Assembly (NCBI RefSeq): GCF_900880625.1
Contig: NZ_CAAHFB010000002.1
Location: 62,001-126,000, forward strand
Reading direction: 5' to 3'
Origin: Halorhabdus rudnickae
Lineage (GTDB): Archaea; Halobacteriota; Halobacteria; Halobacteriales; Haloarculaceae
Length of the DNA: 64,000 bases
This document shows positions 52,653-58,260 of this stretch, piece after piece. The notes under the pieces are model-generated. The model was not told the DNA's origin. It did no database searches and saw nothing but the letters and a program-made list of their open reading frames with translations. Every line of letters begins with the position of its first letter. The first letter of the stretch is position 1. Both the position numbers and the translations under genes were made by a program.

Positions 52653-52833
52653 CTTGACTCTACACGTCGGGGGTCGAAAGTCGAAGCCGAACTATTAGGT
52701 CCACAGCAACTGACGCACCGGAGATAAGACTTTGACCTCGGTGTATGTGGGTCTAACCGGCGTATTTCACTGAACTATACCGATGAGGCTGCCCAGTAAT
52801 TAGAATTATAATACAGAATGGGAATAATGTTGT
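52653..52833 (+). promoter_or_regulatory. Intergenic region with the promoter of the Qat-CBASS operon
   Basis: Divergent spacer between tfb and the CBASS-like operon. AATTAGAATTATAATAC at about 52,799-52,814 gives a TATA box centred some 27 nt before the ATG at 52,834, so the operon mRNA is probably leaderless. No other sites recognised. Confidence 0.5.
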
Positions 52834-53295
52834 ATGGGAACGGCAACCCGGAACCGATCCGGGGCATCCAACGCTGGTTATGAAGACGCGAAACGCGAGT
52901 TAGCTGATGCTGCGGGTGATAAAGATGCTGCCAGAGCAAGTGAAATCTATTTCAAGGTGATTCTGGCTGCTCAACCGAACGGCGCAGCTAAAGTTCCAGC
53001 ATATCTAGCGGTCCGATACGGCTCTGAATTCGTAATAAAAAGCCATCAAAACGGTGTTGAGTCTGCCACTAGGGATGTCGGTGCCTCAGTTGCAAAAGAG
53101 GTCGTTGCAGCAGGCGCCTCTGAAGCCGTTGTTGAGCAAGCCTCAAAAGAGGCTGCCAGTCGAGGCCTTGCTGATGGATCTCAGGGCACAGACCGAGCCT
53201 TCTCAGGGTCCGCAGAACGAGCAATGGAAAGTGCGATGGGTGACATTATGACCGAAGGAGCTGATGCTCTTGAACGACACCGAGATTCAGAATAA
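52834..53295 (+). CDS. QatB-like small protein with Met-Gly-Thr N-terminus
   Basis: 153 residues, Ala/Gly/Ser-rich, with a helical body (YEDAKRELADAAGDKDAARA; VGASVAKEVVAAGASEAVVE). It starts MGTATRNRSG. QatB proteins of Qat defence systems, as I recall, also start MGT followed by small residues, and QueC-like enzymes of defence systems have been reported to modify an N-terminal Gly of a partner. First gene of an operon containing such a QueC-like enzyme. The leaderless ATG at 52,834 leaves the N-terminus as read. Homology to QatB is not proven; only the N-terminus and context support it. Confidence 0.6.
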   Translation: MGTATRNRSGASNAGYEDAKRELADAAGDKDAARASEIYFKVILAAQPNGAAKVPAYLAVRYGSEFVIKSHQNGVESATRDVGASVAKEVVAAGASEAVVEQASKEAASRGLADGSQGTDRAFSGSAERAMESAMGDIMTEGADALERHRDSE

Positions 53296-53674
53296 TATTG
53301 ACGAGTTCGTAGAGGCCCATGGCGTTGAAGGATTTTTCCGAGTATATTTTCGGGAGTATCTGTTTCAACTGCTTAACGAGGAAATTGAGGCAGCTACAAA
53401 TGATCCCGAGTCAGACTCCGCCCTTCAACTCCATTTCAGCCAGAACGTTGAGACTGACCAAGAGTTGGAGGAATTTGAGGAACAACTGCGAGATCAGTGT
53501 GCCAACCGGGCGGATGAGTTGGTCGAAGAAATACAGGATCAACCCGAATTGGCACCGATTTTCGAAGATGCCGATGTGGAGTTACTAGAGCATGAGGACG
53601 TAGAGGAAATGATTCGGCATACTATGCATGAGATGATTGAGGCGTGGGAGGACGAGGACTTTGAAGGGAACTAA
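53264..53674 (+). CDS. Acidic helical protein of unknown function, 136 aa
   Basis: 136 residues with a strong excess of Glu and Asp. It has an aromatic N-terminal helix (GFFRVYFREYLFQLLNEEIE) and acidic helices after it. No family recognised. Its start overlaps the end of the preceding gene by about 30 bp (a TTG two codons later would shorten the overlap), and its stop overlaps the next gene, so it is embedded in the operon. It could be an adaptor between the QatB-like protein and the QueC-like enzyme, or a second substrate. Confidence 0.6.
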   Translation: MLLNDTEIQNNIDEFVEAHGVEGFFRVYFREYLFQLLNEEIEAATNDPESDSALQLHFSQNVETDQELEEFEEQLRDQCANRADELVEEIQDQPELAPIFEDADVELLEHEDVEEMIRHTMHEMIEAWEDEDFEGN

Positions 53675-55106
53675 GCGATTTCTGATTAAGTCCGGGACCG
53701 GATCGACCCTTAGCGAAGCAGACTCGGACTACACCATAGTCGTCGACGATTATCGGACCGAGACCGAAACGGAAGGTGGTCGTCTAATAAAGTACAAGAA
53801 GAAGGTTCTCAATGATCTGTTCGGCCACAGTCCTCCTCCAACAGTCACGGCGTTGGTTGAGCTTGCACTCGGTACGTATGCTGCGGACCGTTTAGTGAAG
53901 CGAGGGCCAACTGGTGCGAAAGATGATGGGGAGGAAATGCTGAAATCACGGCAGATACAGATTTTGTACCCTGTTGTCGACGTGGAGAAATGGCAACCGT
54001 TGGAGTCTGAACTGAATCACGCTGTTAGCTTCATCTCGCGTGATAACTTTCAATATCGGTTCATCGATGCGATAGACGCGGATCAGTCCATTGATGAGAG
54101 CGATGGTAGAAATCGTGATCAGTTGCCTGAGCCTGATTCTGTCGCACTTTTTTCTGGCGGATTAGATAGTTTGGGTGGCCGATTTCACCTCGCTGATGAG
54201 GGCCACAATCCTCATTTTGTCAGTGTGGATCATGGTCGAAACGTCGGCCATCTAGTGCGGAATTTTGACCATCTCTTCGATGGTAATCTTACTTCAGTTG
54301 GTGTCGACGAGGAGTTCTCTGCATACGAAGATACGCAGTTCACTCGGTCATTCATGTACTTCGCCTTCGCCGCCGCTGTCGCGGTAGCTCTCGATGTTGA
54401 TGATATTTATGTCCCCGAGAATGGTGTCCTCTCACGATTCTCCTCGCTGGAATCCGGCTGGACGACGACTCGCACGGTCCATCCACTGTTCGTTAAGAGC
54501 TTGAATCGAATTTTTGAGGAACTATTTCCGGACCGGAAGGTGGAAATCACCAATCCGTTCCTTGGTTACACGAAGAAGGAGGTCGTCGACTGTATCCCAA
54601 ACAAAGAGGATATCTTCTTTACTCGAACTTGTCCCCATCCACGTGAATTGTCGCAGGGAAAGAACGCTGACGGACACCCATACAACTGTGGTGAGTGTAT
54701 TCCTTGCCTTATCCGTATCATTGGTCTGGTAAACAGCGAGCACAATATACAACCAGACGAGTTGATGTTAGACAAGAATCATCTCTTGAACTTTGACTTC
54801 TCGACCGTGGGTGTGGAGAATATTGCTCAATCCGAACAGGGTCGACAGTCCAGTTTGTCAGTGTTTTTGTTGGGTTTGAATGCGCATCTCTCGTTCGCGT
54901 ATCGTATCCAGACTTCGACTCAAAAGGAACTGGTATCATCTCATCCTGAGCTTCTCGATCCAGATATACTAGGGCTCTATGAGCGGTTTAGCAGGGAGAT
55001 ATTCCGGACTGTGAAGTTCTTTGCAACTGAAAACCCAACGCTGGAAGACTACGTCACAGAGTTTCTTTCCTTGGAGAACAAAGAGCTCGCCAGCCTGAAG
55101 CAGTAG
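53637..55106 (+). CDS. QueC-like enzyme (QatC/Cap9-related)
   Basis: 489 residues from a TTG at 53,637, or about 481 from a TTG at 53,661; both overlap the preceding gene. Seen: the PP-loop ATP pyrophosphatase motif LFSGGLDSLGG near residues 172-182, and C-terminal Cys residues CPHP...YNCGECIPC near 331-360 that match the zinc site of QueC. It is about twice the length of metabolic QueC (around 220 residues), as in defence-type QatC and Cap9, with an N-terminal extension of 170 residues. Family knowledge: QueC makes preQ0 from CDG; related defence proteins instead modify protein partners. No TatD (QatD) or KAP ATPase (QatA) is nearby. Confidence 0.8.
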   Translation: MRRGRTRTLKGTKRFLIKSGTGSTLSEADSDYTIVVDDYRTETETEGGRLIKYKKKVLNDLFGHSPPPTVTALVELALGTYAADRLVKRGPTGAKDDGEEMLKSRQIQILYPVVDVEKWQPLESELNHAVSFISRDNFQYRFIDAIDADQSIDESDGRNRDQLPEPDSVALFSGGLDSLGGRFHLADEGHNPHFVSVDHGRNVGHLVRNFDHLFDGNLTSVGVDEEFSAYEDTQFTRSFMYFAFAAAVAVALDVDDIYVPENGVLSRFSSLESGWTTTRTVHPLFVKSLNRIFEELFPDRKVEITNPFLGYTKKEVVDCIPNKEDIFFTRTCPHPRELSQGKNADGHPYNCGECIPCLIRIIGLVNSEHNIQPDELMLDKNHLLNFDFSTVGVENIAQSEQGRQSSLSVFLLGLNAHLSFAYRIQTSTQKELVSSHPELLDPDILGLYERFSREIFRTVKFFATENPTLEDYVTEFLSLENKELASLKQ

Positions 55107-55166: not shown

Positions 55167-56063
55167 ATGATATCTCGTGCAAAACTTAACCGCTGGACAC
55201 ACTCGGAAACTGCAAATCAAGAAGAAGCCCGAGATACTAATCGCGAACTCCGGGATGATCTAGAAGAAGGCGGGCTCCAGGGTGTCAGTGAAGGGTTAGA
55301 ATTCGCCACCCTCCTCCAAGGTTCGTACCGGAACACGACTATGGTGTACAATTCTGGTGACGTAGATATCCTTGTTATTCGGACGGACACTTTCCATGGG
55401 GATTTCTCACACGTCCCTGATCACGCTGTCAGCCATGCCCCCGATCGAAATCCACAGCAGATGTTCGAGGAGCATGCCGAAGGCGTGTATCGAACCCTAC
55501 AAGCCCAATACGGGACACGCAATGTCGAACGTGGTGAGAAGGCAATAGAAGTGGATAGTGATGAGTTGCCCCTTGGGGCCGATGTCGTTCCTTGTCTCCA
55601 GTATCGACGATTTTGGTCACGCCAGCCAGGAAACCACATGAAAGGAATTGTATTCTGGTCTCCAGACGGGACGAAGATCATCAATTTCCCACGCCGTCAT
55701 CGAATTATGGGCACTAGGTACAACGAATATACAAATGGAAATTACAAACCAACGATTCGTATTTTCAAGAACTTCAGAAATACACTCGCAGAGAACGGCG
55801 CTATTGAGAAGGAAAACGCTGCGTCCTACTTCATCGAGTGTCTCCTCTCAAACGTTGAGACTGCTACAATAGCAACGGATGATATTCGCGATCGAGTTGA
55901 AGGAATTCTCGATGAACTCGAAGCCGACGCTGAAGAAGGATTCCCTGACTATACCGTACAGCATGGGATGCAACCGTTGTTTGGTGACGAGACGACCCAG
56001 TGGGATGTCGAACACGCCAGAGCGTTCATCACAGAGGCCAGACGCTTCTATGAAGAGGATTAG
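55167..56063 (+). CDS. CD-NTase (CBASS nucleotide cyclase), first copy
   Basis: 298 residues. Seen: the nucleotidyltransferase signature LLQGSYRNTT near residues 49-58, metal-binding DVDI near 67-70 and a third acidic position in the GADVVPC segment near 137. A helical C-terminal half ends with PLFGDETTQWD, also present in the second copy. Family knowledge: CD-NTases make cyclic oligonucleotides after phage sensing and activate a linked effector. The gene starts 60 bp after the QueC-like gene and is followed 5 bp later by a Cap15-like effector, so it is part of the same operon. Confidence 0.85.
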   Translation: MISRAKLNRWTHSETANQEEARDTNRELRDDLEEGGLQGVSEGLEFATLLQGSYRNTTMVYNSGDVDILVIRTDTFHGDFSHVPDHAVSHAPDRNPQQMFEEHAEGVYRTLQAQYGTRNVERGEKAIEVDSDELPLGADVVPCLQYRRFWSRQPGNHMKGIVFWSPDGTKIINFPRRHRIMGTRYNEYTNGNYKPTIRIFKNFRNTLAENGAIEKENAASYFIECLLSNVETATIATDDIRDRVEGILDELEADAEEGFPDYTVQHGMQPLFGDETTQWDVEHARAFITEARRFYEED

Positions 56064-56068
56064 TAGCG

Positions 56069-56716
56069 ATGCATACCTACTCAACGGACAACGACAATAG
56101 GCCGACTGTATACGGTATTCTTGGATTCGCAGCCTATGCAGCCGCCCTTGCCGTGGGATGGCTTTCAACAACGCTTAGTGCAGTAATACCCGCAGTCGCG
56201 GGCATTACGATCTCATGGGGTGTGGGATTCACTCTTCTTACAGCGACATTCAGTCGGTTCATCTGGAAGACCGGAATCGCCCGCGCAACAGGAGCGTCAA
56301 AAGTTCCTGATTTCAACGGCGAGTGGACGGGATACGTAAAAACCTCGTATGAAGGAGTGATTCCGGATGATGCGCTTCACGCGTCGAACGACCCGAATGC
56401 GGAAATGCAGCGGGTCGCTGCGACACTGCAAATTACCCAGACATGGCGAAAAATTAGCATCCACCTGGAGACCGATAATTCCGAGTCAGACAGTACTGGC
56501 GCAACCGTACTGACTGAAGATGGGCGTTGGCCGAGCCTCAACTACCAGTATGAGAACGATCCAGACCCAGATTCAGCCTCTTCGATGACAAGACACTACG
56601 GAACCGCTGACTTAGCTTTAAAAACAGACTCCGACGAAACAGTACTAGAGGGGTTCTATTACACAGGCCCTGGCCGTGAGAACTATGGAGAAATGTACTT
56701 CGTGAAATCAGGGTGA
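56069..56716 (+). CDS. Cap15-like CBASS effector (2 TM helices plus beta-barrel), first copy
   Basis: 215 residues. Two hydrophobic segments near residues 10-33 and 38-66 are followed by a beta-rich domain starting VPDFNGEWTGYV, with repeated strands and an ending of EMYFVKSG. This is the layout of Cap15: two TM helices and a cyclic-nucleotide-binding beta-barrel. Family knowledge: ligand binding makes Cap15 oligomerise and disrupt the inner membrane. It follows the CD-NTase by 5 bp. Its stop lies 4 bp from the stop of the opposite-strand homologue. Confidence 0.82.
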   Translation: MHTYSTDNDNRPTVYGILGFAAYAAALAVGWLSTTLSAVIPAVAGITISWGVGFTLLTATFSRFIWKTGIARATGASKVPDFNGEWTGYVKTSYEGVIPDDALHASNDPNAEMQRVAATLQITQTWRKISIHLETDNSESDSTGATVLTEDGRWPSLNYQYENDPDPDSASSMTRHYGTADLALKTDSDETVLEGFYYTGPGRENYGEMYFVKSG

Positions 56717-56720
56717 CTGC

Positions 56721-57338
56721 TCAGTTCACTCTATACAGTTCCAGTATTCCATGGGTTCCTCGCTGATCCGGTCGGTTGTAGTACTTGCCTTCAAGTTTGT
56801 CTTGGCCCTCATCGTATTCTAAGATAGCAGTCCCATAATGCGGATCAAGCTCCTCGTTGGTGGTACTCCCATCATTCCAGTAGTTATACGAGAGTGTCGG
56901 CCAAGCCTTTTCTTTAACTAGAATCGTCGCTGCTCGGCTGTGTGAGGGCGACTCTGGTCCATTCAAGGATACACGTATCTTATCCCACGTCTGATTAATC
57001 TCAATACTGGTTTCTTGTTTTGTTAGCCCCTCAACCTGACGTCCCTCGTCAACAATTTGTTCGTCGGGAATGAGATCCGCGTCGGCGGACGTGTACAGAT
57101 ATCCTTCCCATGATCCATTCAAGTTTGGAACAGCGACCAGTCCCTTATCGTGTAACCACTCCCATTTCCAGAGGTACCTTGTGAATCCGATGTATAGTAA
57201 TGACGAGACAATACCCAATGAGAACCCGACTATAGGACCAAAAACACTGATTCCGCCCAGATAGATTACAGCAGTAAGGATACCGATTAGGATGTACCGC
57301 TGATGGCGATTCGCTTGGTCAGTGGAAAAGTTGTGCAT
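56721..57338 (-). CDS. Cap15-like CBASS effector, second copy
   Basis: 205 residues with the same layout as the first copy: MHNFSTDQANR start (first copy MHTYSTDNDNR), two hydrophobic segments near residues 14-52, then a beta-rich domain from VPNLNGSWEGYL and an ending of ILELYRVN. The DPHYGTA and LEGKYYNRP blocks match RHYGTAD and LEGFYYTGP of the first copy. Its ATG overlaps the end of the second CD-NTase gene (57,319-57,338), so the two are coupled. Same membrane-effector role expected. Confidence 0.82.
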   Translation of the reverse strand: MHNFSTDQANRHQRYILIGILTAVIYLGGISVFGPIVGFSLGIVSSLLYIGFTRYLWKWEWLHDKGLVAVPNLNGSWEGYLYTSADADLIPDEQIVDEGRQVEGLTKQETSIEINQTWDKIRVSLNGPESPSHSRAATILVKEKAWPTLSYNYWNDGSTTNEELDPHYGTAILEYDEGQDKLEGKYYNRPDQRGTHGILELYRVN

Positions 57339-58260
57339 TTTTCTTCTTGTCGTACCAGTCTTCCCACATTTCTCGGAGGCGGTTTATGAGTTCATCTGCC
57401 TCATCAGTGTTCCATTGAGTGTTGCTATCTCCAAATAAAGGCTCCATCTCGGAAACCTGATCGAAGCTTGAGAAGTCCGCGTTTTCTAAGTGGGTGAGTA
57501 TTTCGTCGAACCGGTCTGATCGACTGGTTCGCTTTAAGATGTTCTCAGGAACGTTGTATATGAGACACTCGATTCCGTACGAGTGAGCATCAATCGTCCA
57601 AAGCGTATCGAAGTGGTTGTTGTAATAATACCGTGCGTTCTTGAATATACGGACCGTCTCTTTGTAGTTTGAGTGCATATCCTCTCCGTTCTCCCGATGG
57701 ATCTTGGGAAAGTTGATTATACGATTGTCGCCGTTCTGCGGCATAAAGTGCATTCCCTTGTCGATTTCTGCGTCGTCGTCGCCGCCTTCGGGATATGTCC
57801 GGTAGACACGGTACTCACCGCACGCGACCACATCAACGTCGACGTCAAGTAGTGATGTTTCGTCCTTGTCGATCTTGATTGCCTTATTACCGGGAGTAAC
57901 AGCCGAACGACCAAACTTGATCCTGAGTGCCTTCAGCACATCATCGTAGAAATCACGATGATCATAATCGGCATCATCATGATCCTCATCGTATCGTTCC
58001 TCCTCCTCTTCACTGAGTTCCTCAAGATCGGAGCGCCATGCAGACGTGATTTTCGCGACGACGTCTACGTCGCTCGACCCTCGTGTGTGTGTTGTGTTTG
58101 CATATGAACCCTGTAAATAGACCTCGTAGTCTTCGTCCGCTTGTTCCAGAGGGGAGCGTTCGCTCATTAGAGCACGGCGAGTTTTATCCCGTGCATCAGC
58201 CGACCCCTTATCAGCCCCGGTACCATGCCAGTCATTAAATTTGCTTTCAGGAATCGGCAT
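57319..58260 (-). CDS. CD-NTase (CBASS nucleotide cyclase), second copy
   Basis: 313 residues. Seen: LQGSYANTT near residues 48-56, SDVDVV near 62-67, and an acidic strand LLDVDVDVVACGEYR near 137-151 for the third metal ligand. An acidic, Asp/Glu-rich insert at about 78-100 is absent from the first copy. The PLFGDSNTQWN block near 285 matches the first copy. It is first in a two-gene operon with the second Cap15-like effector and lacks the QueC-like part. The two CD-NTases have diverged enough that they may sense different triggers or make different products. Confidence 0.85.
   Translation of the reverse strand: MPIPESKFNDWHGTGADKGSADARDKTRRALMSERSPLEQADEDYEVYLQGSYANTTHTRGSSDVDVVAKITSAWRSDLEELSEEEEERYDEDHDDADYDHRDFYDDVLKALRIKFGRSAVTPGNKAIKIDKDETSLLDVDVDVVACGEYRVYRTYPEGGDDDAEIDKGMHFMPQNGDNRIINFPKIHRENGEDMHSNYKETVRIFKNARYYYNNHFDTLWTIDAHSYGIECLIYNVPENILKRTSRSDRFDEILTHLENADFSSFDQVSEMEPLFGDSNTQWNTDEADELINRLREMWEDWYDKKKNAQLFH

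What the first reader, a model, noticed from the sequence alone, without database searches (positions are those of the whole stretch)
52834..52870. Met-Gly-Thr N-terminus as a likely modification site
The first gene product starts MGT followed by small polar residues, and the promoter places the start codon firmly. From memory, QatB starts the same way, and QueC-like defence enzymes attach a deazaguanine-type group to an N-terminal Gly after Met removal. The CD-NTase here starts Met-Ile-Ser and the 136-aa protein Met-Leu-Leu, so the 153-aa protein is the best substrate candidate in the operon.
Basis: partly seen in the sequence, partly recalled or inferred. Interest (0 to 1): 0.72.

Follow-up and report, generated by a model that had tools for sequence, protein, structure and literature searches.

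The report
Archaeal split-QatB defence with conserved Met-Gly start
A three-gene cassette in salt-loving archaea pairs an enzyme of the Qat anti-virus system with a small protein whose Met-Gly start is kept in every relative found, which points to that glycine as the place where the enzyme works; the partner that is one protein in bacteria appears to be split in two here.

Summary
The ATG at 52834 is the only start available at the 5' end, and the protein begins MGTATRN. All 14 haloarchaeal homologues (down to about 30% identity) keep Gly2 as MG[T/S]A. In 391 genomes of the class the protein occurs only in genomes with the QueC-like gene. The two QueC-positive genomes without it have QueC at a contig end. 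Third codon positions vary, so selection acts on the protein.

The enzyme is QatC-like, not Cap9-like: QatC profile E 1e-39, invariant Thr-Arg-Thr in the substrate site, four zinc cysteines, QatC extensions. All 22 bacterial QatB proteins read here start MGTS, and QatB Gly2 is experimentally essential for defence (PMC13279940).

First, the 153-aa and 136-aa proteins together align co-linearly with QatB, well above order-swapped, rotated and reversed controls: a probable split QatB. Second, there is no QatA or QatD, and the CBASS genes are an optional neighbour present in 3 of the 14 cassettes. The same gene order with an MG start recurs in two other archaeal lineages.

No modification has been shown. 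For QatC itself the chemistry is unresolved in the literature, so "deazaguanine" is not established.

The parts
52804..52813 (+). TATA-like element (AATTATAATA region) of a probably leaderless promoter
   Evidence: sequence; conserved block upstream of the ATG in close homologues; inference from haloarchaeal promoter spacing
52834..53295 (+). 153-aa protein, QatB N-terminal-half equivalent and putative substrate (MGTATRNRSGASNAGYEDAKREL...)
   Evidence: 14 homologues, Gly2 invariant, only in genomes with the QueC-like gene; co-linear with the N-terminal part of QatB in the joint alignment
52837..52839 (+). Gly2 codon (GGA), proposed acceptor residue after Met removal
   Evidence: invariant in 14 of 14 haloarchaeal homologues; 22/22 MGTS in bacterial QatB; QatB G2D abolishes defence (PMC13279940)
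53264..53674 (+). 136-aa acidic helical protein, QatB C-terminal-half equivalent; overlaps the 153-aa gene by 32 nt
   Evidence: 13 aligned homologues, always between the other two genes; aligns with the C-terminal 85 columns of QatB; AlphaFold2 pLDDT 76, all helical
53661..55106 (+). QatC-like QueC-family enzyme (481 aa from the TTG at 53661; 489 aa if the TTG at 53637 is used)
   Evidence: PADLOC QatC 1.4e-39 against QueC 5e-4; NCBIfam QatC 3.5e-43; PDB QatC 9zee 3e-22; SGGLDS, TRT and four Cys
55167..56063 (+). CBASS CD-NTase, optional neighbour, not part of the conserved cassette
   Evidence: PADLOC Cyclase 1e-81; absent beside most other copies of the cassette
56069..56716 (+). Cap15 2TM/beta-barrel CBASS effector, optional neighbour
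   Evidence: Pfam Cap15_CD_rec 2.7e-31; PADLOC 2TM effector 1e-55

Best explanation
The three genes 52834-55106 are a stand-alone archaeal form of the Qat anti-virus core (QatB plus QatC). The first protein carries a flexible Met-Gly-Thr tail. Methionine aminopeptidase exposes Gly2, the tail enters the active site of the QatC-like enzyme, and the enzyme uses ATP to activate a carboxylate substrate and join it to the Gly2 amine. The 136-aa protein is the separated C-terminal half of QatB, the part that holds the QatC docking surface in the bacterial structure, so here substrate tail and docking half are two proteins that must come together. Shown here: gene order, invariance of Gly2, QatC-type active-site residues, absence of QatA/QatD, joint alignment to QatB. 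Taken from the literature: QatB-QatC complex, need for Gly2 and for the active site, Cap9 chemistry. Inferred: that modification happens, what is attached, and the role in defence.
For: QatC identity; the haloarchaeal enzymes form one clade beside bacterial QatC. Gly2 invariant. Strict co-occurrence, 11 of 13 QueC-positive genomes with both exceptions at contig ends, and no occurrence without QueC. Split QatB: the concatenated 153+136 profile against 22 bacterial QatB scores 44.8 global and 46.0 local, against a maximum of 16.4/19.4 for reversed and 34.3/34.0 for rotated controls, and 23.7/34.0 for swapped order. Same gene order with an MG start (MGSQNRS, MGGRKSY) in two other archaeal families with QatC-profile enzymes. 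The host has its own canonical QueC and a TGT, so the 7-deazaguanine pathway is likely present. Literature: PMC13279940 (QatBC sufficient for defence, G2D loses it), PMC11996544 (Cap9 attaches a 7-amido-7-deazaguanine to an N-terminus), PMC13329287.
Against: No modification is measured, and the authors of PMC13279940 could not reconstitute QatC activity. The 153-aa half aligned alone to QatB does not beat rotated controls, so homology of that half rests on the joint alignment, gene order and MG[T/S] start. PADLOC, NCBIfam and Pfam find no QatB in either small protein. The 136-aa model finds no QatB fold in the PDB copy, and the 153-aa model is too poor to use. The QatC matches lie below NCBIfam's curated cut-off (148 against 280 bits). 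The conserved QatB Pro16/Trp18 motif is not seen in the shorter haloarchaeal tail.
Confidence: 0.72

Rival explanations
1. Gly2 and the tail are needed only for docking in the QatC pocket (a plug or activity switch), without any covalent modification.
For: The reaction of QatC is unresolved and was not reconstituted, and the nucleobase-recognition residues are replaced by Thr/Thr (PMC13279940; TRT invariant here).
Against: Loss of ATP-site residues abolishes Qat defence (PMC13279940), which argues for catalysis; the ATP motif is kept here (SGGLDS or SDGLDS).
Confidence: 0.15
2. Met-Gly is an ordinary N-terminus kept for Met removal, N-terminal acetylation or leaderless translation, unrelated to the enzyme.
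For: Gly2 is common, about 10% of haloarchaeal ORFs in a crude count; the mRNA looks leaderless.
Against: Invariant over strong divergence, with third codon positions free to vary, and the same motif in bacterial QatB (22/22), where it is functionally required (PMC13279940).
Confidence: 0.08
3. The cassette belongs to the CBASS next door, as in type IV CBASS, with the CD-NTase as the true substrate.
For: CD-NTase and Cap15 lie directly downstream on the same strand.
Against: The CD-NTase starts MIS, not MGGS. The enzyme is QatC- and not Cap9-like. No TGT-like Cap10 is on this contig. The CBASS genes are missing beside most other cassettes.
Confidence: 0.04

Closest known systems
qatABCD (QatB-QatC core), P. 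aeruginosa and E. coli
   Same: QatC-type QueC enzyme with TRT substrate motif, zinc cysteines and N/C extensions; small partner with MG[T/S] start encoded just upstream; bacterial QatBC alone is enough for defence against some phages (PMC13279940)
   Different: No qatA or qatD near any haloarchaeal copy; QatB apparently split into 153-aa and 136-aa proteins; motif MGTA/MGSA instead of MGTS; short tail; archaeal hosts
Type IV CBASS Cap9/Cap10 with an MGGS CD-NTase
   Same: QueC-family enzyme acting on an N-terminal glycine; a CD-NTase lies nearby in this window
   Different: Substrate here is not the CD-NTase; no Cap10; Cap9 Tyr/Asp recognition pair absent
Canonical QueC (preQ0 synthase)
   Same: Rossmann ATP-pyrophosphatase core and zinc site
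   Different: Host has a separate canonical QueC; this protein is far larger and lacks the canonical base-recognition motif

Membership tests
QatC | SGGxDS ATP-pyrophosphatase motif | tested here: met
   SGGLDS at residues 173-178 of the window protein; SDGLDS/SDGIDS in the distant haloarchaeal clade
QatC | Two Thr (T-R-T) in place of the QueC/Cap9 Tyr/Asp pair | tested here: met
   T278-R279-T280 of the window protein invariant in 12 sequences and shared with bacterial QatC
QatC | Four zinc-binding cysteines | tested here: met
   C332, C351, C354, C357 invariant
QatC | N- and C-terminal extensions and the loop before TRT | tested here: met
   alignment with 15 bacterial QatC; loop 3 residues shorter
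QatC | WxR, RxRxxxF/Y and CxxRR signatures of PF06508 cluster 2 (PMC13329287) | tested here: not met
   partly changed here: LKSR for WxR, FTRSFMYF, CLIRI for CxxRR
QatC | NCBIfam QatC equivalog cut-off (280 bits) | tested here: not met
   148 bits, E 3.5e-43: a relative below the curated cut-off
QatB | MGTS-type N-terminus | tested here: met
   MG[T/S]A in 14/14 against MGTS in 22/22 bacterial QatB: same Gly2, Ser4 becomes Ala
QatB | Helical core homologous to QatB | tested here: inconclusive
   joint 153+136 profile above all controls; 153-aa alone not; no family-library or fold match
qatABCD system | QatA NTPase and QatD TatD nuclease in the operon | tested here: not met
   tblastn negative in the window and all haloarchaeal loci, positive in controls
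Type IV CBASS | CD-NTase with MGGS start as substrate of Cap9 | tested here: not met
   CD-NTase starts MIS and is absent from most cassettes
Type IV CBASS | Cap10 (TGT-like) partner | tested here: not met
   only TGT matches of the genome are on another contig
N-terminal modification by a QueC-family enzyme | Covalent group on Gly2 | not testable with these tools
   needs mass spectrometry

The most novel reading that the evidence does not exclude
An archaeal Qat variant in which QatB has been split, so that a small Met-Gly protein is modified at its N-terminus by the QatC-like enzyme with a group that need not be a deazaguanine and can act apart from the docking half: a minimal three-gene protein-conjugation defence without QatA, QatD or a CD-NTase, found in at least three archaeal lineages.
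Probability: 0.35. Interest if true: 0.75.

Novelty: new variant of a known kind. Interest (0 to 1): 0.62.

Why it matters
What QatC attaches to QatB is an open question in the field, and its activity has not been reconstituted. A three-protein archaeal version without QatA and QatD, where the glycine-bearing part is a separate small protein of about 15 kDa, is a convenient system for intact-mass measurement. It would show whether N-terminal glycine conjugation is a general immune chemistry across archaea and bacteria. Of the papers read here, one calls QatC mainly bacterial, and none that I searched mentions a split QatB.

Tried and rejected
A viral-contig search with the QueC-like protein found no relatives. 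Pfam, PADLOC and NCBIfam gave no family for the 153-aa protein; the weak DUF445 and LeoA matches of the 136-aa protein were set aside as coiled-coil noise. AlphaFold2 of the 153-aa protein was unusable (pLDDT 43). Foldseek and VIA-align with the 136-aa model gave only generic helical matches and no QatB; deposited QatBC entries may postdate that copy. Type IV CBASS membership was considered and rejected. The idea that the QueC-like enzyme itself has a conserved MG start in distant relatives (MGNSSRN...) was rejected: that stretch is an upstream extension, and the deposited annotation starts later, 480 codons including the stop. Homology of the two small proteins of the non-halobacterial archaeal loci to those of the window is not significant, so those loci count as same architecture only.

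Full report
Observation. The 153-aa ORF at 52834-53295 begins MGTATRNRSGASNAGYEDAK. The in-frame TAA at 52825-52827 and the absence of any start between it and the ATG fix the N-terminus. A TATA-like stretch about 20-30 nt upstream lies in a block conserved in the close relatives, which fits a leaderless message. The 136-aa gene (53264-53674) overlaps the end of the first gene, and the QueC-like gene follows, probably from the TTG at 53661, preceded by GGAGG. Gly2 by itself is unremarkable: 6 of 60 crude haloarchaeal ORFs.

The enzyme. It is a QatC relative: PADLOC QatC 1.4e-39 against QueC 5e-4, NCBIfam QatC 3.5e-43 though below the curated cut-off, and the only PDB sequence matches are the QatC chains 9zee and 9vlk. 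The alignment shows SGGLDS, the Thr-Arg-Thr that replaces the Tyr/Asp base-recognition pair of QueC and Cap9, four cysteines, and both extensions. Some signatures given for PF06508 cluster 2 in PMC13329287 are changed. In a tree the haloarchaeal enzymes form one clade beside bacterial QatC. The host has a separate canonical QueC and a TGT elsewhere, so it probably makes 7-deazaguanine precursors for archaeosine.

Homologues and the refutation test. In 391 genomes of the class, 13 have the enzyme and 11 have the 153-aa family, all within those 13. The two exceptions, G145 and G155, have the enzyme at a contig end (G145 also seen). A scan of genome contigs added Halapricum and Halosimplex copies. 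Of the 14 complete cassettes, all have the three genes in the same order, though in one the 136-aa ORF is cut to 73 aa. Gly2 is invariant in 14 of 14 down to 30% identity, in the form MG[T/S]A. The codons vary at third positions. The N-termini of the 136-aa family vary. CD-NTase and Cap15 accompany the cassette in the window and L015, and a CD-NTase in L016, whose contig ends just after it; other copies on Natrinema and Halolamina plasmids lack them. QatA and QatD were not found near any haloarchaeal copy, while the same search found them in control operons.

Bacterial comparison. Twenty-two QatB proteins read from annotated or tblastn-found qatABCD operons all start MGTS, and in the 12-sequence alignment M1-G2-T3-S4 are the only fully invariant columns. 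Gao et al. (PMC13279940) report that QatB and QatC form a complex sufficient for defence against some phages, that the QatC ATP site and TRT threonines are needed, and that QatB G2D abolishes defence; they could not identify the reaction. N-terminal attachment of 7-amido-7-deazaguanine is reported for Cap9 in type IV CBASS (PMC11996544).

Split QatB. The 136-aa profile aligns with the C-terminal 85 columns of QatB and the 153-aa profile with the N-terminal part. Joined in gene order they score 44.8 (global) and 46.0 (local). Joined in swapped order they score 23.7 and 34.0, rotated controls reach at most 34.3 and 34.0, and reversed-and-rotated controls at most 16.4 and 19.4. The 153-aa half alone does not exceed rotated controls, and structure did not help. 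The summed length of 289 aa matches QatB (239-298 aa in this set). In the published complex the QatC-binding surface lies on QatB helices 6-8, that is in the later half, which here would be the 136-aa protein. I rate the split at about 0.75.

Beyond haloarchaea. Two further archaeal families of the phylum carry the same order: an MG-start protein of about 150 aa (MGSQNRS..., MGGRKSY...), a protein of 94-96 aa, and an enzyme that matches the PADLOC QatC profile (1.5e-22 and 9.6e-17). In L069 the start is ambiguous (several Met codons in a row), but in its 87%-identical relative L092 the ORF starts directly at MGSQ. The small proteins there are not demonstrably homologous to those of the window.

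Mechanism. Most likely Met1 is removed, the tail of the 153-aa protein enters the QatC-type active site, and Gly2 is joined to an activated carboxylate at the cost of ATP. Shown: architecture, conservation, residues. From literature: necessity of the equivalent residues in bacterial Qat. Inferred: the reaction here, the group attached, the link to virus defence.

Origin. The contig of G145 (same genus as the window's genome) has the length and QueC position of Halorhabdus salina scaffold19, so the window is probably from a Halorhabdus species (inference).

Noticed in passing
55167-58260: Two CBASS-like pairs (CD-NTase plus Cap15-type 2TM effector) lie tail to tail on opposite strands, 55167-56716 (+) and 56721-58260 (-), with proteins about 33% identical to each other; L015 has the same arrangement.
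   Followed up: partly
L017:8938-9159: In the Natrinema salinisoli plasmid the 136-aa gene is cut to 73 aa while the flanking genes look intact: a decaying copy, or a sequencing error.
   Followed up: no
L069:3684-5645, L092:2538-4492, L070:3879-5918: Other archaeal families carry a three-gene cassette of the same order: MG-start protein of about 150 aa, 94-96-aa protein, QatC-profile enzyme.
   Followed up: partly
L094:2264-4891: Bradyrhizobium plasmid: a QueC-like protein without TRT (TRHAHP) beside a glycine-rich MGSGSFGGG protein and an ASCH-domain protein, possibly another QueC-type defence variant.
   Followed up: no
L031:8495-9748: Beside the cassette in Natrinema salinisoli lies a 417-aa protein with a weak Mrr-type restriction endonuclease match (E 0.001).
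   Followed up: no
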